The translations under genes were made by a program, and so were the position numbers. From an uncultured Flavobacteriaceae bacterium (GTDB lineage: Bacteria; Bacteroidota; Bacteroidia; Flavobacteriales; Flavobacteriaceae): a DNA stretch of 64,000 bases. The notes beneath the pieces were generated by a model. It did no database searches, was not told the origin of the DNA, and worked only from the letters and a program-made list of their open reading frames with translations. Shown here piece after piece: positions 24,119-39,611 of the stretch. The stretch spans positions 372,001 through 436,000 of the forward strand of contig CANKZG010000001.1 of NCBI GenBank assembly GCA_947488435.1, written 5' to 3'. How positions within the stretch are numbered: position 1 is the first letter of the stretch; the number at the start of each line of letters is the position of its first letter.

Positions 24119-24997
24119 CTACTTCTTATTTGACGAAACAAAAGCTAAGTTAGTTTTATAGATGGCGCGTTCATTTTTCCAATCAATCCATTTTTGCCCC
24201 CTTATTCTTCGCATCAAGTTATCAAAGTATCGCATAATCAAAACATTGTAAACGGCTTTTCCCAAATTCTTAGGGTTTCTTGCAATTGCTCGTAAACTCA
24301 TCGAAAAACCAGGAGTTAAATAACGCATATAATGCCAGTATCCTTCTGGCATATACAATACTTCGCCATGATTTAAATAGGTCTTAAAACCTTGCACATT
24401 TTTAAGTGCCGGCCATTTTTCAAAATCCGGCTTAGCAAAGTCTATACTCTCGTGAGTTATTAAAGAATGTGGTACTTTATAGAGAAATTTATTTTCGGTT
24501 TGGGGAAAGAGGATACATTCTTTTTTACCTGCAAAATGAAAATGAAAAATGTTCGCCAAATCAATATCATAGTGCATAAATGTATAGGAGTTTTTTCCCC
24601 CAAAAAAAAGCATCGGTAATTGCTTCATCAATCGCAATCCAAAATCCGGATAACTAAAATCTTTCTGTAGCTGTGGCACTTCTTTTAAAATGTTCCAAAG
24701 AAAGATTCGATAACGAGTGGGTTGATTTTTAAGAAGATCAATATACTCCGACATTTGCATTTTCGCATGAGGCTCATTAAAACCGTCCTCATGATGCACT
24801 GGACGATCGTCGTATAACGGAACAATCTTGTTTCCTGCTACCTGTTTTATATAGTCCAGGTCCCATTTTGAAAAAGCAGGCCAATCTTCAATCATATTTT
24901 CTATAACCACGGGTTTTTGTGGTTTAAAATACAATTGCATAAAATCTTCCTTCGTAATGCTTTTTACGCGAGGTATGTCCTGTAAGTTCAATTGCAA
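24119..24997 (-). CDS. Cupin-like (JmjC-type) 2-oxoglutarate/iron oxygenase
   Basis: A 292-residue protein of the cupin_8/JmjC-related family. The iron-binding triad is visible: His142-x-Asp144 (MHYDIDLAN) and His222 (GYWHYMRYL). Lys158-159 and the FHFHFAGKKECILFP stretch fit the 2-oxoglutarate pocket of these hydroxylases. Bacterial members are expected to hydroxylate protein side chains, including ribosomal proteins in known cases, or small molecules; the substrate here is unknown. There is no signal peptide. It is transcribed alone between recX (convergent) and bioB upstream (81-bp gap), with which it might share a transcript. Confidence 0.85.
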   Translation of the reverse strand: MQLNLQDIPRVKSITKEDFMQLYFKPQKPVVIENMIEDWPAFSKWDLDYIKQVAGNKIVPLYDDRPVHHEDGFNEPHAKMQMSEYIDLLKNQPTRYRIFLWNILKEVPQLQKDFSYPDFGLRLMKQLPMLFFGGKNSYTFMHYDIDLANIFHFHFAGKKECILFPQTENKFLYKVPHSLITHESIDFAKPDFEKWPALKNVQGFKTYLNHGEVLYMPEGYWHYMRYLTPGFSMSLRAIARNPKNLGKAVYNVLIMRYFDNLMRRIRGQKWIDWKNERAIYKTNLAFVSSNKK

Positions 24998-25078
24998 TTT
25001 GGTGCGTTTATATTTCCAAATTTAAAAAAACTTAACCATAAAGTTACATTATTATAATAGGCATTGTTGCACGAGGTA

Positions 25079-26161
25079 CTATGCCTTGGCTTTTGCAGTC
25101 TCATTACGCTCTATGGTATGCTTTGGCCTAGTCCATTTTGGTTTTTCCCCCAAAGCTCCATATTGTGAATCTTTCGCTTCCACCGTATCTGGTTGCATAG
25201 CTTTTACAAAAGGTTTTTGTGGCGTCAATCCTAATAATTCGAACATTTTCATGTCTTCATTTACATCAGGATTTGGAGTGGTCAGTAATTTATCTCCCGC
25301 AAAAATAGAATTTGCACCTGCAAAAAAGCACAAAGCTTGCCCTTCTCTACTCATCTCTGTTCTTCCGGCTGACAATCGCACCTGAGTCTTAGGCATAATT
25401 ATTCTGGTGGTTGCCACCATTCGAATCATATCCCAAATTGCTACAGGCTCCATGTCTTCCATAGGAGTACCTTCTATCGCGACTAATGCATTTATTGGAA
25501 CCGATTCAGGTTGTGGGTCTAAGGTAGCCAATGCGACCAGCATTCCAGCCCTATCTTCCAATGCTTCTCCCATACCTATAATACCGCCACTGCAAACAGT
25601 GACATTACTCTTGCGAACGTTATCAATAGTTTCCAATCGATCTTCGAAGGCACGAGTAGAAATTACATCTTTATAATAGTCTTCAGAAGTATCGAGATTA
25701 TGATTATAAGCATATAACCCCGCTTCTGCCAATCGTTTTGCCTGTTGTTCTGTGAGCATTCCGAGCGTACAACACACTTCCATATCCAATTTATTGATCG
25801 TTCGTACCATTTCAAGCACTTGATCAAATTCTGGTCCATCTTTCACATTTCTCCATGCCGCACCCATACACACTCTAGAGCTTCCTGAAGCTTTAGCACG
25901 TAAAGCTTGAGCTTTAACATGAGGAACACTCATCAAATCATTCCCTTCAATATCGGTATGGTAACGTGCAGCCTGTGGGCAATAACCGCAATCTTCAGGA
26001 CAGCCTCCTGTTTTAATGGAAAGCAAAGTAGACACCTGAACGGTGTTCGGATCGTGGTATTTACGATGAATAGTTGCTGCATCATACAGCAACTCCATTA
26101 ACGGTTTGTTATAAATAGCTAAGACTTCTTCTGATGTCCAATTGTGTTTTGTTTCGCTCAT
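25079..26161 (-). CDS. bioB: Biotin synthase
   Basis: A 360-residue radical-SAM enzyme that inserts sulfur into dethiobiotin. The radical SAM cluster ligands are Cys54, Cys58 and Cys61 (GGCPEDCGYCPQ). The [2Fe-2S] region includes Cys of SRVCMGAAW and of VCCTLGML, and the conserved Arg is in VRLSAGR. I chose the ATG giving MSETKHNWTSEEV; the longer frame adds 15 hydrophobic residues not typical of BioB. The other biotin genes of the window (bioA, bioD, bioF) lie 12-17 kb away, so the pathway is split. Confidence 0.97.
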   Translation of the reverse strand: MSETKHNWTSEEVLAIYNKPLMELLYDAATIHRKYHDPNTVQVSTLLSIKTGGCPEDCGYCPQAARYHTDIEGNDLMSVPHVKAQALRAKASGSSRVCMGAAWRNVKDGPEFDQVLEMVRTINKLDMEVCCTLGMLTEQQAKRLAEAGLYAYNHNLDTSEDYYKDVISTRAFEDRLETIDNVRKSNVTVCSGGIIGMGEALEDRAGMLVALATLDPQPESVPINALVAIEGTPMEDMEPVAIWDMIRMVATTRIIMPKTQVRLSAGRTEMSREGQALCFFAGANSIFAGDKLLTTPNPDVNEDMKMFELLGLTPQKPFVKAMQPDTVEAKDSQYGALGEKPKWTRPKHTIERNETAKAKA

Positions 26162-26236
26162 AAATACTGACTCCTTTGAGATGCCAAAAATACTAAATAA
26201 ATACAAAAGAGACCTACAGTATATGTTTTCAGAAAC

Positions 26237-29200
26237 TTATTTATCAAGTCCTTTTTGAAGGACATCTTGAATCCCCTCAAGATGCTCACTAAATTTCATC
26301 ATCTGATTCAGTACTTGGGCCATATTATTATTTCCAAGACCTTTCAATTTGTTATTTTTAACAAAGGTTTCCTTGATGTGTAACCATCTGTTTTTTTCTT
26401 CTTTGGTCAAAACCTCTGCCAACTCCTTATATTTTAACAAGTTTGCTTCAGCTGCATTGGTAAGTGTTTGCGACTCGTTTTCATAGTGCGACAACAGTAA
26501 TGTTTCTAACTCCTCGTCATTCATCACCGGAACAATTTTAGCGACCAATTTATTCATATCGCGATAGGAACCTTGAAGTTTAAACGCGGGTTCTAACCTG
26601 TTTGCTTCATCCATTGCAGCGGACTTAATATAGTTTGTGTTCACTAACATGATCCGCTCTCTTACCTGTATTACCTTTTCCAAAACAGAAATATAATCAT
26701 TGATTTCCTGCTTTGTATAATTACCTTGTAACTCTGTTCCTTCCCTATTTCCAGATTCCGCCATGGTGATAAATTGATAAACATCATCAAAATACTTACT
26801 CCCCAACTGGTGTAAAACGGGATTGGAGGTAAGGGAGTTTTCTACCAAGCTCAACTCAAATAAGGCTTTAGTATTTCCAATAATATCGCCCAAATTATAG
26901 ATGTCCGCTCTGTTGGCCAGCATATCAGGTATTCTAAACTTATCCCCACTTTCGGTATAGGGATTACCCGCCATCACAACACAAAACTTTTTACTCCGGA
27001 AATCATAGGTTTTAGACTCTCCCTCGTAAACACCCTCTATCCTTCTTGTTCCATCTGCGAGTGAAATAAATTTTTGTAAAAACTCTGGATTGCAATGCTG
27101 AATATCATCCAAATACAACATAACATTGTTCCCCATTTCGAATGCCAGATTGAGTTTTTTAAGCTCCTCCCTGGCGGCTATATTTGTTGCTGCCATAGGA
27201 TCGACTGAAGTGATCTCGTGGCCTATTGCGGGACCATTTATTTTCATAAATACAAGTCCTAAACGATTAGCAAGATATTCCATTAAAGTTGTCTTTCCAT
27301 AGCCAGGTGGGGAAACCAACAATAACATCCCCATACGGTCAGTTCGTTTGCTATCACCCATGCTCCCCAATTGTTTGGACAAATTATCTCCAAAAAGTGG
27401 GAGGTACACTTGATCAATTAGTTTGTTTCGCACAAAAGAAGATAGCACTCCTGGTTTAAACTCGTTAAGTCGCAATTCTTTTTTGTAGGACGTCATAAGC
27501 GATCTTTTTGTAGAACGGAATAACTCAAAAGCAGGTACTTCTTCAACAACAAAATTATGCAACTGACTTACAAATTGATGGTAATCAAATTCATAAGTTC
27601 CATTTTCTATCAATCGATGTCCTCCTTTAAGTTCTGAAATGGTTTCTTGAGGACTGATATATTTTGTTTTATCAACAGATTCATCATTAAACAATAACAA
27701 ACAAACAACTTCTTGAAGGTAAGCGCTATCTGTTGATCCTTCAATTTCTAAATAAGAAGATACCCATTGCAGAGCCAGATTAATTCTTTCGGCAATATTT
27801 GCCATGTTTTCCAGCTTAGTATTTAGTTTGGTATATATTTTTTTGCTTTTTAATTTTTTAATAAAGCTTTCAAAAATTCCCCAGGCATGATGACTTACTG
27901 TAAATGTATCGTCTGTAAGTAATTCTTTAAATAGATATTGTGCAATTTCCGTCTTAAGTGATTCCGTATACCCATCTATACCTAATAATTGGGTCGTAAA
28001 CACCTCTTGGATTTTGCCCTCCAGACCTGCAATAATTCTTCTATTCGTATTCGCTCCAGGAAAGGCTGAAAGTACTTCCCCCGAGGCTTTTATCGCAGTA
28101 TTGTAATAGGTATGCTCTTCTTTAGAAATACAATTCCAAAAAAACTGTGCAAAAGCACGTATTGGGGAAGGAAAACGCAATAAACCAAGGTCTCGTTCTT
28201 TTTGCTTAAGTATCGTTAAAATATGGTAAGCGTCTACATCATGCACTCCTTTTACATAACCCTCAGTATACCGTTTGCTACTTTCTTCCTTTACAAGCGC
28301 CTTTAATTTACTCTCATTATAGGTTAAAAGTTCTTCCGTTCCGTACTCTTCGTATATAGAATAAGCAAGATAAGCTCCTCTATAAATCGTATCGCTTTCC
28401 GATATAAGTTCACGATCCCAAAGGTTTTTGGTTTCAGCTAAATTGGCATCCTTAATTTCTTTATAAAAATCTGTCCCAGTTAAGTGATAAAATAACGCCT
28501 CTTCTCGGTAAACAATGGTTAAATCTAAGGCTTGCTTGTTAACTCCAAATTTATGTTTTCCAAGCTTTATTACATTTTCACCATCTTCATATAGGTCTTG
28601 TTTATCTTTAAGCTTTCTAGCTGCATCTTCCTTAGCTGTTTTTAATTGTGTTTGAATCCGTTCTGCCTTTCCTACGTCATCCAATTCAAACAATTGCGCA
28701 ACAATATCTCTTAGCTTACTCACCATTAAATCTGCAGCGAAATACCCATTAATTTCTGTCTGGGTTTTAAAGCTTAGTGCTTTGGTTCGAATACCTTTTA
28801 AAATCCGTTCCCCAGAACTTTCTAGTGCAACAGCTTTTCTATTTCTTCCTTCAAGGATACTACTCTTTCGGGTTTCAAATGCATTATATATTTCCTCTCT
28901 TTTTTCAATAATACTTGAAATAAAATCGGGAAAATCAGCAAATTTACCCTCCAGTTCTTCCAGCTGAATTGCTATTTTATTCTGAAAATCCTCTACCTTT
29001 TCAGGAGTATCAGCTAAGTCTAAATAATTAATAATACTTTGATCTATTAATTTTATTTGAGCAGAAAAATCAGCACTAGCCTCTTTTCCTCCCAAAGATT
29101 TTAACGAATTTTTTATTTCCGATTTCAACTGATTTATAGTTGCAAAAATCAAGGAAATATTATCAATTATTTTTGTGGAATGTGCGGTGTCTTCTATTTC

Positions 29201-31114
29201 AAGGTTAGAAACGATTTCAATAAGCATTTCCAAATCGGCAACAATTTGATTTACTTCTTTTTCTAAATTTTTTGCATCGAGTACCTTTTTAATTGTGGGT
29301 AGCAATTCTTGTTTTTCTTGCACTCTTTTATGATAAGGCTGTAATGCTTTATCGTCGAGTAAAAATTGCACGCATCGCTTAGAAATTTTATCACTATTTT
29401 CTGCAATTTGAGTTTCAGAATCGGTGATAAAGTCAGGATCTACATAACGCACTTCTTTTAAGCCAATAACCTCGCCTCGTACTGTTCTCAGTTGAGATAG
29501 CACAAATACAAAGTCATCTATCGTTTTAAACGAGCTGCTTTTTATTTTACTAAAAATAGAAGCGGTCTTTTCCTCCATTTCCTTAGCCAACCGAACCGCT
29601 GTTTTACGAAGTTGAACAACCTTCTCAAATTCGTCAATTGCTGTATTGGCTGCTTGATTAATTTCTAATAAGGGCGTAGAAAGTAAAAATGTTTCTTTTT
29701 CTCTTATCCAATAGTAACTGTCTAGGATATCCAAAGACTGTTTGGAGATGTCGTCATATAAACCATCATAGCTATCTTCTTTATTAAGCAGTGTAATTAA
29801 CCCCTGGCATTCTGCCATAGCTTTTACGATATCTTTATTCCCGATTTTATACAATAAAGAGTCCGTATTTTCTGATGAAGCTGCACTTTGTTTAGCAAAT
29901 GGTGTTTGCCAAATTTGAATGACATGATGTTTTGTTTGCTCCTCTTCCGTTCTAAAGTAACAAAGTTCTCCTGTCTCCAGTAAGGTAAAGCCATTACATA
30001 TGATTGGTGTTTTTACCTCTTGTTCAATTATATTATAAGGCATTAAAATATAAAGCCCCATCTCGCTTTGATAGAATACAAATAAAAAATCTTCTCCATT
30101 TGACGCTACAATCTGCTGTTCAAATTTAACGGCATTAATTCCATGATCAAATACTTTATACGCTCCTGATTGCAGGTAATACCCGTTGGGGAAAATTATT
30201 CCCTGATCATCAGGCAACAAAATAGCGGCATCCTTAATACTTGCTATTTTTTCAACTTCCTGAATTTTATGGTTGTATACAAAATATCGCGCGTCTTCCT
30301 GAAAAGGCTTGATTTCCAACACGATTAGATTTCCTAAATCTGCATAACGGTATTGCCCATCATCAAGCGTCTGATCTACCTGAGCTACGGGTTCATCATA
30401 AATTCCTTTACCATCTTCAGTATTATCTTCTATTTTAATGGTAAGATCGCCTCCTATAGTTTCAACAAATACCTTATCTAAAATTGCAATATGCGGATAA
30501 GTTCCATAACGTTGCGCATCTCTCCCAGCTTCTATCCAATTAAACTCATGCTGTTTGGGAAATTTAAATTCGTGTTCACTCCTATTATCAACATATTTAA
30601 GTTGATCTTCTTTAATAAGCCATTTAAAGGTTTTAATGTCTGTAATACTGTCACTCAGTTGGAATACCATGTGTAAATAGTTTCCAACAATGGCGAATTT
30701 GGTGAAAATTGTATTGCGATAATACTTGTATAGGTTTTTAAAATCGGTTAAAAAGGTAGCGTCTTCGATTAGCGTTAAAGGTTGTTCTACAAAGTGATCT
30801 TCGTCATAAGTATATATACTAAAAACATCATTTAGGGTAATCTCAGTCCGCAATCCAAAATGAACGTTATATCCGAAAATAGAATTGCCTTTTATGGTTA
30901 CAATATCTCGAGCAATACAATTGTTACTTGTGTTAATTCTGTTATTAGCAATGAGTTTAGTTTCCACATTACCAAATACTATGGTTCTTTCGTCGTTTAA
31001 CTGTTTGAGACGATTTTGCAAATCTGATTTTTGTTTTTGCAATCTCGTTTGGATGATTTCATAAGTACCTCCATCGAGATGCATCTCAGCTTTACTGGAT
31101 TCTTGCTCTTGCAT
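26237..31114 (-). CDS. Giant DUF3686/AAA+ ATPase (annotated elsewhere as DNA repair ATPase)
   Basis: A 1,625-residue cytoplasmic protein. Residues about 20-60 form a coiled coil, about 100-480 look like DUF3686, a beta-rich region named from proteins called DNA-repair ATPases, and about 480-900 are long coiled-coil helices. One AAA+ module lies near the C terminus: Walker A at about 1265 (SPPGYGKTTL), Walker B at about 1335 (LYLDDIQ), sensor Asn near 1383 (VMAGNPYT) and an Arg-finger-like NRADIYN near 1401. The DNA-repair name is inherited and unsupported here. It is the last gene of the PspA-YqiJ-flotillin operon, so remodelling of membrane-bound PspA or flotillin assemblies, as Vps4 does for ESCRT-III, is a better hypothesis. 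A 139-bp spacer with two hairpins separates it from the flotillin gene. Confidence 0.88.
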   Translation of the reverse strand: MQEQESSKAEMHLDGGTYEIIQTRLQKQKSDLQNRLKQLNDERTIVFGNVETKLIANNRINTSNNCIARDIVTIKGNSIFGYNVHFGLRTEITLNDVFSIYTYDEDHFVEQPLTLIEDATFLTDFKNLYKYYRNTIFTKFAIVGNYLHMVFQLSDSITDIKTFKWLIKEDQLKYVDNRSEHEFKFPKQHEFNWIEAGRDAQRYGTYPHIAILDKVFVETIGGDLTIKIEDNTEDGKGIYDEPVAQVDQTLDDGQYRYADLGNLIVLEIKPFQEDARYFVYNHKIQEVEKIASIKDAAILLPDDQGIIFPNGYYLQSGAYKVFDHGINAVKFEQQIVASNGEDFLFVFYQSEMGLYILMPYNIIEQEVKTPIICNGFTLLETGELCYFRTEEEQTKHHVIQIWQTPFAKQSAASSENTDSLLYKIGNKDIVKAMAECQGLITLLNKEDSYDGLYDDISKQSLDILDSYYWIREKETFLLSTPLLEINQAANTAIDEFEKVVQLRKTAVRLAKEMEEKTASIFSKIKSSSFKTIDDFVFVLSQLRTVRGEVIGLKEVRYVDPDFITDSETQIAENSDKISKRCVQFLLDDKALQPYHKRVQEKQELLPTIKKVLDAKNLEKEVNQIVADLEMLIEIVSNLEIEDTAHSTKIIDNISLIFATINQLKSEIKNSLKSLGGKEASADFSAQIKLIDQSIINYLDLADTPEKVEDFQNKIAIQLEELEGKFADFPDFISSIIEKREEIYNAFETRKSSILEGRNRKAVALESSGERILKGIRTKALSFKTQTEINGYFAADLMVSKLRDIVAQLFELDDVGKAERIQTQLKTAKEDAARKLKDKQDLYEDGENVIKLGKHKFGVNKQALDLTIVYREEALFYHLTGTDFYKEIKDANLAETKNLWDRELISESDTIYRGAYLAYSIYEEYGTEELLTYNESKLKALVKEESSKRYTEGYVKGVHDVDAYHILTILKQKERDLGLLRFPSPIRAFAQFFWNCISKEEHTYYNTAIKASGEVLSAFPGANTNRRIIAGLEGKIQEVFTTQLLGIDGYTESLKTEIAQYLFKELLTDDTFTVSHHAWGIFESFIKKLKSKKIYTKLNTKLENMANIAERINLALQWVSSYLEIEGSTDSAYLQEVVCLLLFNDESVDKTKYISPQETISELKGGHRLIENGTYEFDYHQFVSQLHNFVVEEVPAFELFRSTKRSLMTSYKKELRLNEFKPGVLSSFVRNKLIDQVYLPLFGDNLSKQLGSMGDSKRTDRMGMLLLVSPPGYGKTTLMEYLANRLGLVFMKINGPAIGHEITSVDPMAATNIAAREELKKLNLAFEMGNNVMLYLDDIQHCNPEFLQKFISLADGTRRIEGVYEGESKTYDFRSKKFCVVMAGNPYTESGDKFRIPDMLANRADIYNLGDIIGNTKALFELSLVENSLTSNPVLHQLGSKYFDDVYQFITMAESGNREGTELQGNYTKQEINDYISVLEKVIQVRERIMLVNTNYIKSAAMDEANRLEPAFKLQGSYRDMNKLVAKIVPVMNDEELETLLLSHYENESQTLTNAAEANLLKYKELAEVLTKEEKNRWLHIKETFVKNNKLKGLGNNNMAQVLNQMMKFSEHLEGIQDVLQKGLDK

Positions 31115-31152
31115 AAGCTATTCTTTCAATTCTTTGCTAAATTTATATGAGA

Positions 31153-31229
31153 ATTCTAAAAAGGAATATCGTTTTAATAATTCCTTAGAATATCCTAGAA
31201 ACTTACTTAAATCATAAATCTCTAGGATA
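31153..31229 (-). other. Two intercistronic hairpins between the flotillin and AAA+ genes
   Basis: Hairpin 1 (arms from 31153 and to 31191) pairs ATTCTAA...GGAAT with ATTCCTTAGAAT with a 3-nt bulge. Hairpin 2 (31191-31199 with 31221-31229) pairs TATCCTAGA with TCTAGGATA around a 21-nt loop. Neither is followed by a U run on the minus strand, so they are not classical terminators. Processing or expression-tuning sites are possible. Their arms touch at 31191. Confidence 0.5.
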
Positions 31230-31253
31230 ATTATTGTCTGTTGACCTTAGGAC

Positions 31254-33320
31254 CTACTTTAGTTTCTTATCGGATAAGCCCAAACCTTTTGCCAAGTTTA
31301 AAAGGTTACTAAACAAGGTATTCTCTTCCGTATCTGATGTTTTTTGCTTTAGGTTAAGCAGGATATTAGCTATCGTTAGATTTTTAATATCTTCTGAAGA
31401 AACACCATATTTGGTTGCAAATTCCCTGATCTTAAGCAGTAGATTCCCTTTCACATCTTCGCTACCTAAGATGGCATCTTTAATATCCTGAATATTATCC
31501 GAATGCTGCACTAGTCTGTCGAATCCTTTGGCATTGGTTATCTGACCCACAATTTTATCAAAGAACATTGTTTCACCTCCAACAATATCGATATTGGCTG
31601 CTTTCAATGCCTCTCCGATAACTGCGGCTTGGGCATCGGCAATCTCTTTTTGAATATTAATTTCAGCCAAGTCTACCTGCAGTTCCTTATCTAAACGCAA
31701 TTTAAATTCTTCGTGTTCTTTTCCAACACCATCTAATTTCTTCATTGCCTCTGCTTTCTCCTCTATTCCTGCAGCATCAGCTAGCGCTTTTTCCTTAATC
31801 ACTTCCGCTTCAGCCAAACCTTCTTCTTTTAACGCATCAGCTTTAGCTAAAATACCTGAAGCTTCTGCTTTGGCTTTCTTCTCTATGATAAGTGCATCTA
31901 CCAGACCTTGACGTTCATGTGCATCGGCTTTGGCATGCATTACTTGTGCTTCAGACATACCAATAGTTGCCTCTTCTTTGGCTTGTGCTTCAGCTAAAAT
32001 CTTACGCGCTTCAGCTTCTTTTTCACTAGCCTGTTTCTTCGCCAAGGCTTCAATATTAATTTCTTCTGCTTGTTGCTTCGCCGCTTCTTTTTGTGCTTCC
32101 GCTGCTTTGGTGGTTTTAATAAGCCCCTCCTGAGCGTCGGCTTCAGCAATGGTTATTTTTACTTGTTTCTCTCGATCTGCAGTTTTAAAAGCTTCAATAT
32201 CCTTCATGTTCTCTCGCTCTTCAACTACGCCTTTTTCTAACATAACGCGATCTCTAATAACATCTTGAATGTTTTTCTTTTCTACTTCTACTACTTTTTC
32301 TTTTTCTATTTGCGCCAGTGTAACAATACGTTCTCTTTCGGTAGCTTCCAACATCCGGTCTTTTTCTACACGTTCTGTTTCAACTGCATCGGTACGTTGT
32401 TTATTTTTTGCCGCAACGATTACCTGTCTTTGCTTATTTTCTTCCGCTACCTGTACTTTTTCTTCCGTAGCAATACGGGCAGTTTCTGATTTTAAACGCT
32501 CTTCTTCAGCTACTTTTAGAATATCTGCTCCTTCTCGCGCTTTAATATTGGCAATTTCCCGTTTCTGTTGTTCTTCTTTCTCCGCCAATTGTTTGTCTAA
32601 CTCCAAAATAGCTTCCTGAGCTTCAACATCTTGCTTGCGAATAGTTTTCTCTTCATCTCTGCGGATTAAATTGGCCTTTACATTCTGTGCTGCCGTGAGC
32701 TCTGTAATTTTCTTAATCCCCTCGGCATCCAAAATATTATCGGATTTCAGAAACTCCAGACTTGTTTGTTCCAAGTCATCAATAGCACAATCATCCAATA
32801 CATAGCCATTTAAATCGGTGCCAATAATATTTACAATTTCATCTCGAAATTCTCTTCGCGCCTCATAGAGTTCTATAAACTCAAACTTCTTTCCAACTGT
32901 TTTTAAAGCTTCAGAAAACTTTGCATCGAAAAGACTGCGCAGTGTTTCTATATCCGAAGCACGCTCGCAACCAATAGTCTGTGCCACATTTATGATATCG
33001 TCCTTTGACTTATTAACACGTACAAAAAAGGCGACATTAATATCAGCTCGAATATTGTCTTTACAAATAAGACCATTTACCCCGGTACGTGCAATTACAA
33101 TCTTTTTTACGGAGATATCCATAATTTCTACACGGTGAAAAACAGGAACAACGTAGAGTCCTTTATCAAAAGCAACATGAGTCCCTTTAAACCCCGTTCG
33201 AACCAATGCCTGTCCTTGTGGGATTTTCTTATAAAAAAGAGCTATGATTATAAAATAAATTACAATCAGAAAAACGATTGAGCCTATTATTATGCCGACT
33301 ATGCCTGATAAAAATTCCAT
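31254..33320 (-). CDS. Flotillin/SPFH-domain membrane protein (YqiK-like)
   Basis: A 688-residue protein. One N-terminal membrane segment (about 5-30) is followed by an SPFH/Band-7 domain (about 35-220; GLYVVPVFHRVEIMDISVKK, INVAFFVRV). About 240-590 is a very long Lys/Glu/Ala-rich helical stretch with repeated KAEA/ADAxE units, the flotillin domain that builds rings and microdomains. A globular tail ends the protein. Size, one anchor and the pairing with a YqiJ-like gene fit YqiK (about 550 residues in E. coli, here longer by the helical stretch). It probably forms a membrane scaffold. It lies 9 bp after the YqiJ-like gene in the same operon. Many plus-strand reading frames inside it are by-products of the repetitive coding. 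Confidence 0.93.
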   Translation of the reverse strand: MEFLSGIVGIIIGSIVFLIVIYFIIIALFYKKIPQGQALVRTGFKGTHVAFDKGLYVVPVFHRVEIMDISVKKIVIARTGVNGLICKDNIRADINVAFFVRVNKSKDDIINVAQTIGCERASDIETLRSLFDAKFSEALKTVGKKFEFIELYEARREFRDEIVNIIGTDLNGYVLDDCAIDDLEQTSLEFLKSDNILDAEGIKKITELTAAQNVKANLIRRDEEKTIRKQDVEAQEAILELDKQLAEKEEQQKREIANIKAREGADILKVAEEERLKSETARIATEEKVQVAEENKQRQVIVAAKNKQRTDAVETERVEKDRMLEATERERIVTLAQIEKEKVVEVEKKNIQDVIRDRVMLEKGVVEERENMKDIEAFKTADREKQVKITIAEADAQEGLIKTTKAAEAQKEAAKQQAEEINIEALAKKQASEKEAEARKILAEAQAKEEATIGMSEAQVMHAKADAHERQGLVDALIIEKKAKAEASGILAKADALKEEGLAEAEVIKEKALADAAGIEEKAEAMKKLDGVGKEHEEFKLRLDKELQVDLAEINIQKEIADAQAAVIGEALKAANIDIVGGETMFFDKIVGQITNAKGFDRLVQHSDNIQDIKDAILGSEDVKGNLLLKIREFATKYGVSSEDIKNLTIANILLNLKQKTSDTEENTLFSNLLNLAKGLGLSDKKLK

Positions 33321-33329
33321 ATAATGTTT

Positions 33330-34037
33330 TTAGTTTAAAGGTTCGATTAAATATATTTTTTTATCACTGGTGTGATTTACAATTTCTACTTTAGAATGCG
33401 CAGGAATGGTTTTTCCATTTTTAGATCTCACATACACTTTTATTGGACTTCCGTCTACAACCACTTCAAGTGTTGTCATTTTATCACCTGAAATTTCAGA
33501 CCCTAAACTACCTTGTCTTCCTAAAAGTTCAATCGCATGTTCCCCATCATGACTTAGGTTCTTAAAAAAGCGTTTAAAAGGCGTGGTAATTATTTTGGTG
33601 ATTATTAAGGAAACAGGTATTGCTCCAAAGAAAAATGCAAATCCAAAAACGGTATTATAACTTTGTGTAACATAGGTTCCTATCATACTTAAGGCCCACC
33701 AAAAAAGCACCCAAAAAGTAAGTGTAAACATAAAAGGTAGTCCCACAAAATTAAAGTAGATAAGAAATACTTGAAATACATTAAGTTTTCCACGTCTGCG
33801 AAGCACATCTTCTTTTTTTACTTCCGTATTGGAAACATCGTTGACATCAATACTTGTTCGAGCATCGAATTCCGTATCCATATCCATGTCGATATCCACG
33901 TCGACATCTACGTCCATATCCATGTCGAAATCCAATCCCGAAATGGTGGTGACGATCCAATACAAAAGCAGCAATCCAAATAATATGGTAAGCGAGATAT
34001 TTACTTTTGAAAATGCTATTTCTATAATTTGTTCCAA
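33330..34037 (-). CDS. YqiJ-like membrane protein with C-terminal OB fold (DUF1449 type)
   Basis: A 235-residue protein. It has membrane segments at about 14-33, 92-120 and 127-150, and a cytosolic C-terminal part (about 170-235) with short strands (RQGSLGSEISG, VVVDGSPIKVYVRSKNG) resembling the OB/NfeD-like domain of YqiJ. Just after the first helix is a striking acidic run of alternating Asp with Met, Val or Ile (residues 36-54). NfeD/YqiJ proteins partner with flotillins, here the next gene. A role in anchoring or gating the flotillin assembly is inferred from that pairing. It follows the PspA gene by 2 bp. Confidence 0.87.
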   Translation of the reverse strand: MEQIIEIAFSKVNISLTILFGLLLLYWIVTTISGLDFDMDMDVDVDVDIDMDMDTEFDARTSIDVNDVSNTEVKKEDVLRRRGKLNVFQVFLIYFNFVGLPFMFTLTFWVLFWWALSMIGTYVTQSYNTVFGFAFFFGAIPVSLIITKIITTPFKRFFKNLSHDGEHAIELLGRQGSLGSEISGDKMTTLEVVVDGSPIKVYVRSKNGKTIPAHSKVEIVNHTSDKKIYLIEPLN

Positions 34038-34039
34038 TA

Positions 34040-34756
34040 TTAACTGTCTTTTTTATCGTTAAAACCCAACTGCTCTTTTAGTTTCGCCAAATCATCTTCT
34101 GCATTAGCATCTGTTACGTCAATTGCTTTATCAATTTCTTCGTCAATCGATTTTGACGCATTTGCAATATCACCATACGCTTCAGCCAGAGCTTCTTCTT
34201 GATTTACTTTATCTTTCATTCGCTCCAACATAGAAACTGTACCTGAACTATCAATTTCCGCCATTTGTTTATTTAGGTTCTTTGTAGCTTTCGATACTTT
34301 CACGCGGGCCTTTAATGTTTTTAATTCATTTTCCCATTTGGTGATATTTTGTTTTATCTCCTGAATATTATTCTCCAACTGTGCTACAGATTTATTGAAC
34401 TTCTCAGATTCACCTCTGCTTTGATCTGCTTGTTTTTGAGCCGCTTCCTTTTTCATTAACGCTTCTTTAGCCAAACGATCCGCTTCGGTCATTTCTAAAT
34501 CTCCAGCTTGCGCTTTTTTAAGAATAAGCATTGCTTTCTGCTGATAATCTTCTGTTTTAGTAATAAAACTTTCTGTATCATTTTTTGCTCGTATAGCAAG
34601 TGCTTTTACTTGAGCTAAAGCTTCTACGCTTTTCTCTAAATCGCTCTTCATATCTCTGATCCCTTGTTCTGTCATATTGATTGGATCTTCCATTTTGTCA
34701 ATTGTAGCATTCGCTTCTGCCTGACCTATTTTAAATAATCGTTTAAAAAAATTCAT
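34040..34756 (-). CDS. PspA/IM30-family protein
   Basis: A 238-residue helical protein of the PspA/IM30 (ESCRT-III superfamily) type. The N-terminal amphipathic helix (MNFFKRLFKIGQAEANATID) is the membrane-insertion element; it is followed by the EDPINMTEQGIRDMKSDLEKS region and a long hairpin of coiled coils (about 25-190). The short helices at the end are charged. PspA family proteins polymerise on stressed membranes and limit proton leakage or repair bilayers. No PspF/PspB/PspC genes are nearby; instead it is co-transcribed with flotillin and an AAA+ ATPase. The spacing to its neighbours is 2 and 4 bp. Confidence 0.93.
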   Translation of the reverse strand: MNFFKRLFKIGQAEANATIDKMEDPINMTEQGIRDMKSDLEKSVEALAQVKALAIRAKNDTESFITKTEDYQQKAMLILKKAQAGDLEMTEADRLAKEALMKKEAAQKQADQSRGESEKFNKSVAQLENNIQEIKQNITKWENELKTLKARVKVSKATKNLNKQMAEIDSSGTVSMLERMKDKVNQEEALAEAYGDIANASKSIDEEIDKAIDVTDANAEDDLAKLKEQLGFNDKKDS

Positions 34757-34760
34757 CTGT

Positions 34761-35156
34761 TTAATATTTTGAAAAGTTTATAATTTGTTCTGAATATTCG
34801 CTTAAAAGGAGACTTAAAGAGTTCAAAGAACCTTCTAATTCGTTAAGATCTAGATTTTCTACCTGTAAGGTATCTCTAAAAATTACTTTTTCTCCAGTTT
34901 CATCTAAGACAAATGCACCATGTACAATGTCTCTATTTTTTTGCAACAAGTTCTTGTAGATAGTTTCATTACCATTTTTAATATCAAAAATATGTTGCTC
35001 TAAAATTAAAATTGGAGATGCTACTCCTACAATTAGGTTTTTAATTCCTTCATGTTCTTTACTTATCATCAAGATACTATCTGCTCCATTTTCATGGAGA
35101 ATATTGAAATTGAGTTGCAGTAAAAAGTTTTTTACTATTATATAATGGTCCTTCAT
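34761..35156 (-). CDS. YbjN-like (Tir-chaperone-like) protein, first gene of the PspA operon
   Basis: A 131-residue cytoplasmic protein with an alpha/beta pattern of the YbjN or secretion-chaperone-like fold: a helix (YIIVKNFLLQLNFNILH), then strands (SILMISKEH, KNLIVGVASPILILEQHIFDIK), then two helices. Bacteroidota homologues are often labelled YbjN or molecular chaperone Tir. It precedes PspA by 4 bp, so co-expression is certain in practice. A chaperone or regulator of PspA is a plausible inference, not shown by sequence. The assignment of the fold is moderate. Confidence 0.7.
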   Translation of the reverse strand: MKDHYIIVKNFLLQLNFNILHENGADSILMISKEHEGIKNLIVGVASPILILEQHIFDIKNGNETIYKNLLQKNRDIVHGAFVLDETGEKVIFRDTLQVENLDLNELEGSLNSLSLLLSEYSEQIINFSKY

Positions 35157-35280
35157 AGAATTTGTTAGTTTTTAGGTTAGATTTCTTTTCCAGGCGATCT
35201 CTTATCAATATTACAAAAAGCCACATAATTTTAAGACTAGTTTAAAGATAAAAGCCACCAAGTAATATACAATAACTGTC

Positions 35281-35456
35281 ATTAGTAAAGATTAGTTCGT
35301 TTTATTTTGCTAATTATTTTAGTTTTTCGGTAATTTTATTAGACAGGATGTTTTTTATTTCAAAAAAACCACCTAAATTAGCATTGTATAATAGATTTCG
35401 CTAATAATATTAGTGTAAATATACAAAAATAATTGATATTAGCAAATAAAATTAGC
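35281..35456. promoter_or_regulatory. Operator-like array: repeated C/GTAAT-N3-ATTAG sites in the divergent spacer
   Basis: The 304-bp spacer 35157-35460 holds no gene but several copies of one 13-bp inverted repeat. The best is 35401-35413 (CTAAT-AAT-ATTAG, perfect arms). Near copies are 35310-35322 (CTAAT-TAT-TTTAG), 35330-35342 (GTAAT-TTT-ATTAG) and 35443-35455 (CAAAT-AAA-ATTAG), each with one arm mismatch. Extra ATTAG half-sites lie at 35281, 35291, 35377 and 35438. The first two sites are 20 bp apart and the perfect and last sites 42 bp apart, close to whole helical turns. The last ends five bases before the XRE start codon. The adjacent XRE protein is the obvious binder. A chance background from AT richness cannot be excluded for half-sites. 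Confidence 0.65.
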
Positions 35457-35460
35457 AATT

Positions 35461-36219
35461 ATGTCGTTTTTTGGAAAAAATATTCGAAAAATCAGAAGTG
35501 TAAAAGGTTTGAGTCAACAAGGTTTTGCGGAGCTATTTGACTTAAAACGTGGTACTTTAGGAGCTTACGAAGAGGGAAGAAGTGAACCGAAAATTGAAAC
35601 GCTAATTAAAATAGCTAATCATTTTAGCATTAAAATAGATAATTTATTAACACGGGAAATTACAGTTAATGAGCTATTAAAGTTTAAAAGCAATCTTACC
35701 ACAAATACCAAAGATGCTGAAGAAGCTACTTTAGCTACTATTCCATGTATTACGGATCAAAATCTTACCGACTATCTGTCGTTATATGACAATGAAAATT
35801 TTATACGGGAACTCCCTAAATTGACGCTTCCTATTAACCCTACAAAAACATTTAGAGCGTATACGATTTCAAGCTTAGAGATGACGCATCATGACAATGG
35901 TTTTTTTCCAGGGGATATTGTCATTGGAGAGAAAACCCCTATCTCCGTTCTCAAAAAACTAACCAACGGTACACTAGTTTTTTTAATGGTTAGTAATAAA
36001 ATTATTTTCCGCCGGCTTTATATTTTAAAAAATCAGGTGACTTTAAGAGCTGATCATAAAAATATAGAGGATGAACAATTTCCGATATCGGAAGTAAAAG
36101 AATTATGGCGGGTTCGTTATGTTTTTTGCAAACGTATTCCTGACTTTACACACACTTTTGACGATAAAATATCATTTATCGAACAAGAATTGGAAAAAAT
36201 AAAGAACAAATTAAATTGA
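35461..36219 (+). CDS. XRE-family repressor with S24-like sensor domain
   Basis: A 252-residue regulator. The N-terminal helix-turn-helix (about 5-60) reads NIRKIRSVKGLSQQGFAELF with AYEEGRSEPKIETL as recognition and support helices. The C-terminal part (about 120-220) has the layout of a LexA/CI S24 domain (FRAYTISSLEM...FFPGDIVIGE...FRRLYI), but the usual Ser of the GDSM motif is replaced by Glu140 and the usual Lys by Arg at about 184. It therefore looks like a non-cleaving sensor. It faces the PspA-flotillin-AAA operon across the operator array and probably controls both itself and the operon. The last 9 bp overlap the convergent ketosynthase gene. Confidence 0.88.
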   Translation: MSFFGKNIRKIRSVKGLSQQGFAELFDLKRGTLGAYEEGRSEPKIETLIKIANHFSIKIDNLLTREITVNELLKFKSNLTTNTKDAEEATLATIPCITDQNLTDYLSLYDNENFIRELPKLTLPINPTKTFRAYTISSLEMTHHDNGFFPGDIVIGEKTPISVLKKLTNGTLVFLMVSNKIIFRRLYILKNQVTLRADHKNIEDEQFPISEVKELWRVRYVFCKRIPDFTHTFDDKISFIEQELEKIKNKLN

Positions 36220-37410
36220 TACAATTACTGAGACTGCATTTCCTCCAAATCCTACTGCATTAATTAGCACCTTATTAATTTTTTGAGGGATCTCTGCATT
36301 TGAAATAAAAGGTACTCCAATGAATTCCTGATGCTGTAACATTAATACACCTAATTCCAAACTTAACATTCCAGAAGCTCCAAACGTATGACCTAACTTC
36401 CACTTGTTGGTGGTAAGCGCAGGGGTTTTGTTTGCAAACACCTTTTCTATTGCTCTATTCTCTGCCAGATCACCTTTTATAGTACCTGGTGCATGCATCA
36501 CAATAACATCAATTTCATCGGGTTCCAAAACTCCTAATGCCATTTTCATGGAATCCTGAAAACATTGTGCATCCGTAGATATAGAAATATTATGTGTCAA
36601 TGGTTCCGTCGCATAACCAACTCCTTCAATAACGGCCAAACTATGTTTTTTTCTACCTAGCTCCAGACATGCCATTGCCGCTCCTTCTCCAAGTACCATC
36701 GTGTTCCTTTTTTTGCCAAGATCCATAGCACGACAGGGGTATTCCTCTTCAATCGTTTTATCATTTTTATTAGCTTCGACCCGACTTTCTAATTCCGCAT
36801 AAATTTTTAAAGCTTGCATTTGAGCGATAGTAAACGAAGTTAAAGGGGCTTCACATCCTCCCACTAAAAATTTATCGCACATCCCACTTTGCAACCAGGC
36901 TATGCCATTTAACAAGGCGTGTAGGGCTGTAGAACACGTTATGGAATGCGAAATTGTCGGTCCTTTGCTTTTTAAATCGTGTGCTACCCATGAGGAAATA
37001 TTACCTAAGGTAGTTGTAGGCGAAGCAAGAGTCGCTGCTTTACCTGCTTCTAAAAACGTCTTATAATGTTGTTCAAATAGCGCTGTAGCTCCACGTGATG
37101 ATCCAATGTTTACACCAAAATCTGCTGTCCCGCCCCATTTTGAAATTTCCAAAGCTTTTCTGGACGCATATAACGCATATAATACACTTTGGTCCAAACT
37201 TTTATATTTCGTCTCTTCTGCTTGTAGGGACGCTATTTCTATTCGTGCCGCAGCTGATATTTCTGAAACCCACGCATCTTTATTTTCGAAAGGCTTGACA
37301 GTTAAAAAATGCCGCTCTTTTTTATACGCATTCCATACGGCTTCGGGAGAAGTTCCTAAAGCAGAAATAGTGGTTAAAGCGGTAATAGATATGATCTGAT
37401 TCATCTGCAT
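36211..37410 (-). CDS. FabF-like beta-ketoacyl synthase in the biotin region
   Basis: A 399-residue condensing enzyme. The Cys-His-His triad is intact: Cys159 (HSITCSTALHALLNG), His306 (VMHAPGT) and His341 (KLGHTFGASG). This is the decarboxylating FabF/FabB type, not the FabH type. It lies near the biotin genes bioA, bioD and bioF on the same strand, with no carrier-protein gene beside it. No bioC or bioH is seen, so a role in building the pimeloyl chain is possible. Another specialised fatty-acid or polyketide use cannot be excluded. A second in-frame ATG occurs two codons after the chosen start and is equally possible. Confidence 0.85.
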   Translation of the reverse strand: MQMNQIISITALTTISALGTSPEAVWNAYKKERHFLTVKPFENKDAWVSEISAAARIEIASLQAEETKYKSLDQSVLYALYASRKALEISKWGGTADFGVNIGSSRGATALFEQHYKTFLEAGKAATLASPTTTLGNISSWVAHDLKSKGPTISHSITCSTALHALLNGIAWLQSGMCDKFLVGGCEAPLTSFTIAQMQALKIYAELESRVEANKNDKTIEEEYPCRAMDLGKKRNTMVLGEGAAMACLELGRKKHSLAVIEGVGYATEPLTHNISISTDAQCFQDSMKMALGVLEPDEIDVIVMHAPGTIKGDLAENRAIEKVFANKTPALTTNKWKLGHTFGASGMLSLELGVLMLQHQEFIGVPFISNAEIPQKINKVLINAVGFGGNAVSVIVSI

Positions 37411-37554
37411 GTTCTACAATAGCGCAAATCTAGGATATTTGTAAATCCCCATGATACTTTTTTTTAATTATTCATAGGTACACTTCAAATTTGTACATTG
37501 CGCGAATAAACCCTTAGCACCCATATTTTGGAAATTGTATTGGATGATGTGGAA

Positions 37555-38307
37555 ATGATTATTGTAATTCCTTGTTATAATGAATACAATAGATTACCCA
37601 TAGCAGATTTTACAGCTTTTTTAAGCAAACATCCTCAGATTGGACTGTGTTTTGTAAATGATGCTTCCACCGATCAAACCGAGGTGATGTTATTGGAATT
37701 ACAAGCATCTTTTTTAAGTCAAATTTTAGTACTTCGCAATACCAAAAATTTAGGGAAGGCAGGATCTGTAAGACATGGTATTTTACACTGTCACAGCACA
37801 ACTAAGGCAGCAACTTTAGCCTATCTAGATGCTGATTTGGCAACTTCTTTAGAAGAGTGTGTTTCCTATACCTCGTATTTGAATGATACCACCAAATTTG
37901 TTTTTGCTTCGCGAATATTAAAAATTGGTTCCGTTGTAGAACGAAAGTTCTCCAGATTTATATCCGGTCGAATTATAGCAACTTTAATTTCCAACCTATT
38001 GGATATTAAAGTTTACGATACACAATGTGGCTGTAAGGTGTTTCAAAAAGACCTCGCAGCGATACTATTTCAAAAAACTTTTATTTCGAAATGGTTATTT
38101 GATGTGGAGCTTTTTAGTCGGCTATTGGTGTTTTATGGAAAAGAAGATGCGCTTCAAATGATGAATGAAATCCCAGTAAAACGCTGGGTAGATCAAGGAG
38201 ATTCTAAAGTTAAACTTTCTTATTTTTTTAGATTATGGTATGATCTCTACTTGATTCGAAAAAATCATTCCGATCAAATTAAATCCAAAACGGAAAAAAT
38301 TGCCTGA
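37555..38307 (+). CDS. Family 2 glycosyltransferase (dolichyl/undecaprenyl-phosphate type)
   Basis: A 250-residue GT-A enzyme. Key motifs are PCYNE near the start, FVNDAS-TDQT for the nucleotide, YLDADLAT as the DxD-type metal site and a late DTQCGCKVF. The sequence is close to dolichyl-phosphate glucosyl/mannosyl transferase-like proteins that make lipid-linked sugar donors. I begin at the ATG giving MIIVIPCYNE; the longer frame depends on a TTG and adds nine acidic residues. It is rightward, against the biotin genes, and its end overlaps bioA by 34 bp in a convergent way. Confidence 0.85.
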   Translation: MIIVIPCYNEYNRLPIADFTAFLSKHPQIGLCFVNDASTDQTEVMLLELQASFLSQILVLRNTKNLGKAGSVRHGILHCHSTTKAATLAYLDADLATSLEECVSYTSYLNDTTKFVFASRILKIGSVVERKFSRFISGRIIATLISNLLDIKVYDTQCGCKVFQKDLAAILFQKTFISKWLFDVELFSRLLVFYGKEDALQMMNEIPVKRWVDQGDSKVKLSYFFRLWYDLYLIRKNHSDQIKSKTEKIA

Positions 38308-39545: not shown

Positions 39546-39611
39546 TTACAGATTTAATGAAACCTACTTTTTATCTATCTTGCAAAGATGAGAATTAATA
39601 CGAAATAAATA

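What the first reader, a model, noticed from the sequence alone, without database searches (positions are those of the whole stretch)
26237..36219. PspA-YqiJ-flotillin-giant AAA+ operon with a divergent dedicated switch
Five tightly spaced leftward genes (gaps 4, 2, 9 and 139 bp) encode a YbjN-like protein, PspA/IM30, a YqiJ-like OB membrane protein, a YqiK-like flotillin and a 1,625-residue DUF3686/AAA+ ATPase. The order places an ESCRT-III-superfamily polymer (PspA), a flotillin scaffold and an AAA+ ATPase in one transcript, resembling the ESCRT-III/Vps4 division of labour. No PspF, PspB or PspC is present; control seems to come from the facing XRE/S24-like gene instead. The ATPase's DNA-repair name is unsupported here. 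Established: PspA and flotillins act on membranes, and comparative studies of PspA neighbourhoods describe flotillins and AAA ATPases nearby. Inference: this is a self-contained membrane repair or defence module. Its novelty as a whole is not established.
Basis: partly seen in the sequence, partly recalled or inferred. Interest (0 to 1): 0.8.

Follow-up and report, generated by a model that had tools for sequence, protein, structure and literature searches.

The report
Two-module PspA–flotillin membrane stress operon
The genes are real and form a membrane-stress operon whose five-gene make-up is already published; what is added here is that it behaves as two separable modules joined together, that its facing regulator belongs to the PspA half, and that a terminator-like hairpin sits in front of the giant ATPase gene.

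Summary
The five leftward genes, their gaps and the facing XRE gene are confirmed. The first gene is CesT/Tir-like, not YbjN. The five-gene operon is already described (Ravi et al. 2024, PMC11237479), so this is a new member of a known kind.

Added here: (1) Two modules. In 149 family genomes (one per genus), CesT and PspA occur in the same 14; all 15 with the flotillin have the ATPase; PspA and ATPase overlap in 13. In ten records from other phyla flotillin always adjoins the ATPase, PspA is linked in one. The ATPase's constant partner is thus flotillin. (2) The XRE gene goes with CesT-PspA (34 of 35 loci). Its operator overlaps a promoter and has one exact copy in the genome. (3) An unannotated 15-27-residue hydrophobic leader ORF occurs in 19 of 27 testable leaders (1.5 expected by shuffling). 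(4) A terminator-like hairpin precedes the ATPase gene in 27 of 34 gaps (three phyla; both Deinococcus gaps fail), weakening 'one transcript'. (5) The cassette interrupts a biotin gene cluster that is uninterrupted in many relatives.

Vps4 membership is not supported: no MIT or Vps4_C domain. ESCRT-like function remains an analogy. No protein step was tested.

The parts
26237..31114 (-). Giant AAA+ ATPase: N-terminal coiled coil, DUF3686 (possible beta-propeller), DUF7902 and long helices, C-terminal AAA+
   Evidence: Pfam DUF3686, DUF7902, AAA_5; AlphaFold models of the two halves, low to middling confidence; conserved AAA+ motifs in 52 aligned sequences, one of them a duplicate
31191..31229 (-). 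Terminator-like hairpin (16-bp stem, 7-nt loop) between flotillin and ATPase
   Evidence: RNA fold of the whole gap, z=-2.57, 4 of 200 shuffles as low; best 44-nt window z=-5.75, 0 of 60 shuffles; hairpins with z<-2 in 27 of 34 gaps; controls
31254..33320 (-). Flotillin/SPFH scaffold protein (YqiK-like)
   Evidence: Alignment A3, 3 of 21 members hit Band_7; part of the profile matches QmcA in the PDB at E=5.4e-4
33330..34037 (-). YqiJ/NfeD-like membrane protein with an acidic alternating-Asp stretch
   Evidence: Alignment A4; 2 of 18 members hit YqiJ_N and 1 of 18 NfeD
34040..34756 (-). PspA/IM30, the only match in the genome
   Evidence: Pfam E=9.2e-43; single match genome-wide
34761..35156 (-). 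CesT/Tir-type chaperone-like protein
   Evidence: PF22550 E=3.9e-55; the same 14 of 149 genomes as PspA over its cut-off
35205..35219 (-). Conserved motif TTTTYGTAWTATTRA upstream of CesT; possible second promoter or RNA element
   Evidence: First 13 bases within 1 mismatch in 17 of 35 leaders, 16 of them within 61 bp of CesT; one exact site in the genome, none for the control pattern
35211..35282 (-). Unannotated 23-residue hydrophobic leader ORF
   Evidence: Comparable ORF in 19 of 27 testable leaders against 1.5 expected from shuffles
35305..35342 (.). Two operator-like repeats (35305-35322 and 35325-35342)
   Evidence: Direct-repeat family D1
35396..35413 (.). Operator-like repeat downstream of the presumed -7 box
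   Evidence: Direct-repeat family D1; a similar palindrome is seen in many of the leaders listed
35440..35459 (.). Main operator O1, overlapping the presumed -33 element of the operon promoter and lying one base before the XRE start codon
   Evidence: 30 of 35 leaders within 4 mismatches, 20 within 1; single exact site in the genome
35461..36219 (+). XRE-family regulator with a weak S24-like C-terminal domain
   Evidence: Pfam; alignment A5 of 28 sequences

Best explanation
This is a chromosomal envelope-stress cassette made of two modules. Module A is the XRE regulator facing CesT-PspA; module B is the YqiJ/NfeD-like protein, the flotillin and the DUF3686 AAA+ ATPase. Proposed mechanism: the XRE protein binds O1 and neighbouring repeats and holds down both itself and the operon (inferred from position). 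A signal sensed through its C-terminal domain relieves this (inferred). CesT keeps PspA soluble and delivers it, and PspA polymerises on damaged inner membrane (inferred from the families). YqiJ and flotillin build a membrane scaffold that anchors PspA (inferred, by analogy to YdjI with YdjG/H and PspA in Bacillus subtilis, PMC8581546 abstract). The ATPase is made in a different, probably smaller, amount because of the hairpin before its gene, and disassembles or resets the flotillin/YqiJ scaffold, with PspA as a secondary client. Shown by computation: gene content, module co-occurrence, conserved operator, leader ORF, hairpin. Inferred: every protein-protein step, the signal, the repression, and the ATPase's client.
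For: Co-occurrence over the same 149 one-per-genus genomes: ATPase 16; flotillin 15, each with ATPase; PspA over its cut-off 14; CesT in exactly those 14; PspA and ATPase share 13, hypergeometric 4.6e-15, kinship not corrected. Split genomes: G033 and G003 carry module B (L044, L048) and module A with XRE (L097, L096) on different contigs, neither at a contig edge in the stretches read. The four Bacteroidota loci with module B alone (L044, L045, L046, L048) have no XRE or CesT in the stretch. XRE stands beside CesT-PspA in 34 of 35 such Bacteroidota loci, L099 being the exception. In 10 of 10 ATPase loci from other phyla flotillin is adjacent, in 1 of 10 PspA is linked. O1 conserved and unique. 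The XRE HTH is conserved while its C-terminal part is replaced in L064-L067. FLO-ATP gaps carry hairpins (z<-2) as often as convergent flanking gaps (20 of 24 and 24 of 30), more than same-strand flanking gaps (17 of 45).
Against: No experiment, and no protein contact is tested. The genomes are related, so the P value overstates independence. Neither module needs the other: G019, G079 and G121 have the ATPase and no PspA (G079 is 81% complete), G016 has CesT-PspA and no ATPase and no XRE beside it. In the two split genomes no strong operator lies upstream of YqiJ, only a weak site 229 bases before it in L048, so control of module B by XRE is not general. The Hymenobacter-type loci L059 and L068 have XRE but no O1-like site. 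Seven of 34 FLO-ATP gaps, both Deinococcus ones included, lack a significant hairpin; the fold of the window's whole gap is less striking (z=-2.57); many hairpins have no clear U-run. A separate ATPase promoter was neither found nor excluded.
Confidence: 0.52

Rival explanations
1. Bacterial ESCRT-III/Vps4 analogue: the ATPase directly disassembles PspA polymers, flotillin being only the platform (the first reader's view; Ravi et al. 2024 also suggest ESCRT-like roles for PspA partners in general).
For: PspA is the only match in the genome and sits in the operon. In the family sample 13 of 14 PspA genomes also hold the ATPase. Ravi et al. propose ESCRT-like roles for PspA-AAA+ associations.
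Against: The ATPase occurs without a linked PspA in 9 of 10 records from other phyla and without any PspA match in G019 and G121, with flotillin next to it. No MIT or Vps4_C hit at E<=1.
Confidence: 0.25
2. Assembly chaperone rather than disassembler: CesT, flotillin and the ATPase together help to build or control other membrane complexes, with PspA as a membrane sealant.
For: Ravi et al. read CesT, Band-7 and AAA+ partners as chaperones for sub-membrane complexes. Foldseek's first matches to the AAA+ half include NorQ and CbbQ, at E of 0.002 to 0.06 only (that NorQ is a MoxR-type assembly ATPase is recalled).
Against: No constant further gene is seen beside the operon; flanking genes differ between loci. 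The fold match is weak, and VIA-align does not separate the AAA+ clades.
Confidence: 0.15
3. Two neighbouring transcription units, with the ATPase expressed from its own promoter and doing something unrelated to PspA.
For: Terminator-like hairpin before the ATPase; unrelated genes inserted in that gap in several loci.
Against: Flotillin and ATPase go together in 15 of 16 ATPase genomes of the family sample, the sixteenth (G079) being 81% complete with the ATPase near a contig end, and in 10 of 10 records from three other phyla; in the joint Bacteroidota operon the gene order is fixed.
Confidence: 0.1
4. Anti-phage defence island.
For: Patchy distribution (16 of 149 genera; 10 of 395 genomes of a phylum sample); insertion inside a metabolic cluster; a putative abortive-infection gene lies in the FLO-ATP gap of L047.
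Against: PADLOC matches are generic HTH, coiled-coil or P-loop ones. The viral-contig scan found no relative, though it reaches close relatives only. The annotated flanks of six plasmid records name no defence system, apart from a DNA methyltransferase beside the pQBR103 operon; flanks of the other loci are not annotated.
Confidence: 0.04

Closest known systems
CesT/Tir-PspA + Band-7/flotillin + YqiJ/YuaF + beta-propeller AAA+ operon of Ravi et al. 2024 (PMC11237479; example ANH61663.1)
   Same: [quoted passage not shown] Shorter versions without PspA are noted there too.
   Different: The main text has no occurrence of XRE, LexA or S24. The facing regulator, operator, leader ORF, hairpin before the ATPase and the module counts are added here. 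Figures and supplementary tables were not seen, so the regulator may be drawn there.
PspA with the SPFH protein YdjI and YdjG/H of Bacillus subtilis (PMC8581546; abstract and outline seen)
   Same: An SPFH-domain protein and membrane proteins bring PspA to the membrane.
   Different: The abstract names no DUF3686-type ATPase or CesT protein.
E. coli YqiJ-YqiK (PMC2636767; passages seen)
   Same: Flotillin in an operon with a NfeD-like membrane protein.
   Different: The passages seen name no ATPase, PspA or CesT in the unit.
ESCRT-III/Vps4
   Same: A PspA/ESCRT-III superfamily polymer protein and an AAA+ ATPase encoded near each other.
   Different: No MIT or Vps4_C domain; second Walker B acid is Asp; the ATPase's constant neighbour is flotillin, not PspA.
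pQBR103 operon of Pseudomonas fluorescens SBW25 (L069)
   Same: PspA, YqiJ-like, SPFH and DUF3686 ATPase genes in one run.
   Different: YjfI in place of CesT_Tir_1; extra rhomboid, DUF2491, DUF350, DUF1190 and glutathionylspermidine-synthase genes; no XRE of this family.

Membership tests
Ravi 2024 CesT/Tir-PspA-Band-7-YqiJ-AAA+ operon | CesT/Tir protein next to PspA | tested here: met
   PF22550 E=3.9e-55 and PspA_IM30 E=9.2e-43, 4-bp gap
Ravi 2024 CesT/Tir-PspA-Band-7-YqiJ-AAA+ operon | Flotillin/Band-7 protein in the same operon | tested here: met
   By family: 3 of 21 aligned members hit Band_7; the window protein itself has no such hit
Ravi 2024 CesT/Tir-PspA-Band-7-YqiJ-AAA+ operon | YqiJ/YuaF-type membrane protein | tested here: met
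   By family: 2 of 18 aligned members hit YqiJ_N and 1 of 18 NfeD; the window protein itself has no hit
[quoted passage not shown]
   AAA+ met. The N-terminal model has a helix 16-47 and strands in 68-404, but mean pLDDT is 61.2 and the fold search gave no useful match, so the propeller is not shown
ESCRT-III/Vps4 pair | ATPase with MIT and Vps4_C domains | tested here: not met
   Neither is among the Pfam families listed at E<=1 for the window protein
ESCRT-III/Vps4 pair | Classical AAA clade ATPase domain | tested here: inconclusive
   AAA_5 covers more of the domain than AAA in the window protein, but scores are close and AAA scores better in several relatives; structure comparison does not separate the clades
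ESCRT-III/Vps4 pair | ATPase binds the polymer's C-terminal tail | not testable with these tools
   No complex prediction or binding assay available
Classical Psp system (PspF-PspABC) | PspF, PspB and PspC beside pspA | tested here: not met
   The neighbours are CesT, YqiJ-like and an XRE gene; PspC-domain matches lie elsewhere. PspB and PspF were not searched genome-wide
LexA/S24 self-cleaving repressors | Catalytic Ser of the S24 domain | tested here: inconclusive
   Pfam match below cut-off. By eye, the residue before the Met that fits the recalled GDSM motif is Glu (LEM) in the window and several relatives; the placement rests on a recalled motif
Anti-phage defence system | Match to a described defence protein family | tested here: not met
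   PADLOC matches are generic: HTH for the XRE gene (best 4.4e-12), coiled coil for PspA (2.2e-4), P-loop for the ATPase (7.2e-4)
DNA repair ATPase | Known DNA-binding or repair domain, or repair partner | tested here: not met
   No DNA-binding Pfam domain beyond a sub-threshold RuvB P-loop match; constant neighbours are membrane-protein families. DNA binding itself was not tested

The most novel reading that the evidence does not exclude
DUF3686 proteins are a dedicated flotillin-remodelling ATPase family: a bacterial machine that takes apart or resets flotillin/NfeD membrane scaffolds in at least four phyla. In Bacteroidota it has been joined to a PspA-CesT repair module under an operon-unique XRE operator, with a hydrophobic leader microprotein as part of the control circuit and a terminator-like hairpin setting a low ATPase-to-scaffold ratio.
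Probability: 0.33. Interest if true: 0.75.

Novelty: new member of a known kind. Interest (0 to 1): 0.47.

Why it matters
Which ATPase, if any, acts on bacterial flotillin scaffolds is to my knowledge open (recall; not searched as a question). Ravi et al. write that it is unknown how PspA homologues without an associated AAA ATPase regulate assembly. The co-occurrence data name a candidate ATPase and its likely first client, flotillin, and genomes in which the two modules lie apart let them be tested separately. The operator, leader ORF and hairpin make predictions that one RNA-seq and one footprinting experiment could settle.

Tried and rejected
Defence reading: PADLOC gave only generic matches and the viral-contig scan no relative (close relatives only). 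NCBIfam gave no family over its cut-off for the six proteins. Sequence search of solved structures with the ATPase halves: matches around the P-loop only, or nothing meaningful. AlphaFold gave mean pLDDT 68.9 for residues 790-1625 and 61.2 for 1-800. Foldseek with the AAA+ half ranked a NorQ chain first at E=0.0022, none at 0.001 or better. VIA-align matches covered the AAA+ core only (residues 438-607 of the half), Clp, CbbQ, NorQ, p97, dynein and archaeal Vps4 chains lying within Z 8.1-8.9, so no clade can be named. Foldseek with the N-terminal half gave nothing useful. That O1 also controls the detached YqiJ-flotillin-ATPase units was tested: no strong site; a weak one (score 10.9, against 23-33 for the sites used to build the matrix) lies 229 bases before YqiJ in L048, and scores of 9-11 occur elsewhere too, so this is unproven. 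An ECF-type reading of the TTTTYGTAWTATT motif was considered because flavobacterial SM6 promoters carry a CGT box and drive two Band-7 genes (PMC9723704 passages); by eye no consistent upstream box was seen, and half of the sites read TGT, so it is left open. No shared direct or inverted word of 8 bases or more was found between the two cassette junctions, so the mode of insertion is unknown.

Literature: 'DUF3686' gave 0 papers; 'DNA repair ATPase' with 'flotillin' 0; PspA, flotillin, AAA ATPase and YqiJ together 1, which is Ravi et al.. RavA/ViaA/PspA gave one review, seen as a listing only. The library lacks most subscription journals.

Rows dropped before counts: L051 (duplicate of L030); 3 loci cut by contig ends (L036, L049, L056) where said; 8 of 35 leaders too short for the leader-ORF test; FLO-ATP gaps outside 40-330 bp in the hairpin test; only Bacteroidota loci were used, gaps of 45-330 bp, each category capped at 45. 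Congeneric near-copies were kept (L028/L029; L034/L037/L041; L060/L061). The 52-sequence alignment still holds the duplicate L051. 12 plasmid records matched and 11 were fetched, the second Proteus record being left out. Four further genomes had PspA matches below the Pfam cut-off and are not counted.
Full report
WHAT IS THERE. Pfam gives DUF3686, DUF7902 and AAA_5 for the 1625-aa protein, PspA_IM30 for the 238-aa protein, HTH_3 with a sub-threshold Peptidase_S24 for the facing gene, and CesT_Tir_1 (E=3.9e-55) for the first gene of the operon, which is therefore not YbjN. The flotillin and the YqiJ-like protein have no telling Pfam hit of their own; some of their relatives in the same gene position do (Band_7 3 of 21; YqiJ_N 2 of 18 and NfeD 1 of 18). 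The genome has one PspA match and one DUF3686 match; two PspC-domain matches lie elsewhere.

ALREADY IN PRINT. Ravi et al. 2024 (PMC11237479; [quoted passage not shown] That is the operon in the window. PMC9239133 (passages) reports Band-7 genes next to pspA in Bacteroidota and other phyla, and HTH regulators in PspA operons. The main text of Ravi et al. has no occurrence of XRE, LexA or S24; its figures and supplementary tables were not seen.

TWO MODULES. The order XRE< CES> PSP> YQJ> FLO> ATP holds in 31 of 41. The other ten are three cut by contig ends, three Winogradskyella loci with a divergent PspA (37-39% identity) and no CesT or XRE, and four with YQJ-FLO-ATP only. Ten records from Pseudomonadota, Actinomycetota and Deinococcota all have flotillin next to the ATPase. 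Eight have a recognised YqiJ-like gene before it, one (L070) a weak match and one (L072) none; one, plasmid pQBR103, has a linked PspA. In nine plasmid records searched whole, PspA was found linked in two (Hymenobacter, pQBR103), far from the ATPase in three, and not at all in four; two records were not searched.

Over the same 149 genomes of the family, one per genus, the ATPase is in 16, this flotillin in 15, all 15 with ATPase, PspA over its cut-off in 14, and CesT_Tir_1 in exactly those 14. PspA and ATPase share 13 genomes (hypergeometric 4.6e-15, kinship not corrected). In a wider sample of the phylum the ATPase is rare: 10 of 395 genomes. The exceptions tell: G019, G079 and G121 have the ATPase and no PspA match; G016 has CesT-PspA and no ATPase. 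In G033 and G003 the two halves lie on different contigs, and the XRE gene stays with CesT-PspA (L097, L096). Counting joint and detached units, XRE stands beside CesT-PspA in 34 of 35 Bacteroidota loci, L099 (G016) being the exception. So the hard pairs are CesT-PspA and flotillin-ATPase; the joint operon is a fusion common in the Bacteroidota copies.

THE SWITCH. In 30 of 35 XRE-CesT intergenic regions a near-palindrome TTTGCTAATTTTATTTGCAA lies before the XRE start, within 4 mismatches (20 within 1). The five exceptions are L038, L057 (within 3 on the other strand), L059, L066 and L068. In the window it is at 35440-35459; a genome search finds one exact site, the other five matches having 3 mismatches, against ten for the reversed-pattern control. 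Its right half overlaps a TTTG-N19-TATATTTA promoter pointing at CesT, read by eye; the flavobacterial -7 box TAnnTTTG is given in PMC9723704, the -33 part is recalled. Three more repeats of the kind lie downstream. The XRE HTH is strongly conserved while the C-terminal part varies and is replaced in L064-L067; by eye the S24 catalytic serine position (motif recalled) reads Glu. A non-cleaving, ligand- or protein-sensing repressor is the simplest reading (inference).

LEADER ORF AND SECOND MOTIF. Between promoter and CesT, 19 of 27 testable leaders hold an ATG ORF of 14-30 residues with mean hydropathy of 1 or more, against 1.5 expected from dinucleotide shuffles (8 of 35 leaders were too short, and related loci are not independent). 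In the window it is 35211-35282(-), 23 residues. Its sequence drifts while its hydrophobic character stays. A motif TTTTYGTAWTATT lies near its end (17 of 35 leaders within 1 mismatch, 16 of them within 61 bp of CesT); the longer form TTTTYGTAWTATTRA occurs once in the genome. Flavobacterial SM6 promoters carry a CGT box and drive two Band-7 genes (PMC9723704 passages), so a second promoter is possible but not shown.

HAIRPIN BEFORE THE ATPASE. The 139-bp gap folds into a 16-bp stem at 31191-31229; the whole gap has z=-2.57, with 4 of 200 shuffles as low, and its best 44-nt window z=-5.75. Of 34 FLO-ATP gaps of 40-330 bp, 27 have a hairpin with z below -2, in Bacteroidota, Pseudomonadota and Actinomycetota, with different sequences; the seven that do not are L057, L058, L064, L066, L067 and the two Deinococcus gaps L071 and L078. 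Controls in Bacteroidota loci (z<-2): FLO-ATP 20 of 24, convergent flanking gaps 24 of 30, same-strand flanking gaps 17 of 45, divergent flanking 9 of 42, PSP-YQJ 4 of 7, YQJ-FLO 2 of 9, XRE-CES 4 of 27. The junction looks like a transcript end or attenuator, so the ATPase is probably made in a different amount from the scaffold. Some loci have unrelated genes in this gap.

THE ATPASE. In 52 aligned sequences (one a duplicate) the Walker A residues SPPGYGKT, the Asn of MAGNP, the Arg of LANRAD and the Arg of GSYR are invariant, and the second Walker B acid, usually Glu in AAA+ proteins (recalled), is Asp in all 52 (the functional labels are mine from motif order). It is likely an ATPase, perhaps a slow one. 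No MIT or Vps4_C domain is listed; the AAA+ clade is unresolved. The N-terminal model shows a helix, then strands in 68-404, then long helices, at low confidence. Nothing found here links it to DNA.

INSERTION SITE. The cassette lies between a ketoacyl-synthase gene and bioB inside a biotin cluster (bioD, bioA, ketoacyl synthase, [cassette], bioB, cupin; names). Of 29 ketoacyl-synthase loci from relatives, 17 have bioB within 200 bp of it and one at 550 bp; the other 11 show no bioB in the 1.5 kb held. G021 (L053) has the cassette between the same two genes as the window. G002, G033 and G010 have the closed site and carry their ATPase genes elsewhere. No junction repeats were found.

HOW IT MOST LIKELY WORKS. 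A stress-relieved XRE repressor turns on CesT-PspA and, in the joint operon, the scaffold. PspA coats or seals strained membrane; YqiJ and flotillin form the platform; the ATPase, made in a different amount, resets the flotillin platform and perhaps PspA. An SPFH-PspA link has a precedent in B. subtilis YdjI (PMC8581546 abstract). This is inference from co-occurrence and needs biochemistry.

VERDICT. Real, well conserved, and mostly known as a gene set; the regulatory anatomy and the two-module structure are the useful additions.

Noticed in passing
window 24119-41708; L053; L123-L151: The cassette sits inside a biotin gene cluster between a ketoacyl-synthase gene and bioB; 17 of 29 relatives' loci have these two genes within 200 bp of each other (closed site), and G021 has the cassette at the same place.
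   Followed up: partly
L047 10919-11857; L044 11580-12011; L059 8305-8739; L050 9375-9791; L029 8582-9928: The flotillin-ATPase gap collects cargo: a putAbiC gene, DUF559 nuclease-like genes in two loci, a GIY-YIG gene, a 448-aa gene with a weak pentapeptide match.
   Followed up: partly
window 33330-34037 (after the first hydrophobic segment): The YqiJ-like protein carries an alternating-Asp stretch (DMDMDVDVDVDIDMDMD), kept as a D-rich run in many relatives; possibly metal binding.
   Followed up: no
L027 6203-6517; L033 6250-6564: A YbjQ-family gene lies between PspA and the YqiJ-like gene in two Aquimarina loci.
   Followed up: no
L069 (pQBR103): A run of ten genes joins the YjfI-PspA-DUF2491-DUF350-DUF1190-glutathionylspermidine-synthase type of PspA operon with the YqiJ-SPFH-ATPase unit.
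   Followed up: no
window 36211-36219: The XRE gene and the ketoacyl-synthase gene are convergent and overlap by 9 bp.
   Followed up: no
L034, L037, L041: Winogradskyella loci have a divergent PspA in place of the XRE-CesT-PspA set and lie next to the cupin-like gene that follows bioB in the window.
   Followed up: partly
window PspA C-terminus; alignment A6: Most PspA proteins of the operon end in a tail close to LxKLKxQLG, which the divergent Winogradskyella PspA shares; a possible docking motif, untested.
   Followed up: no
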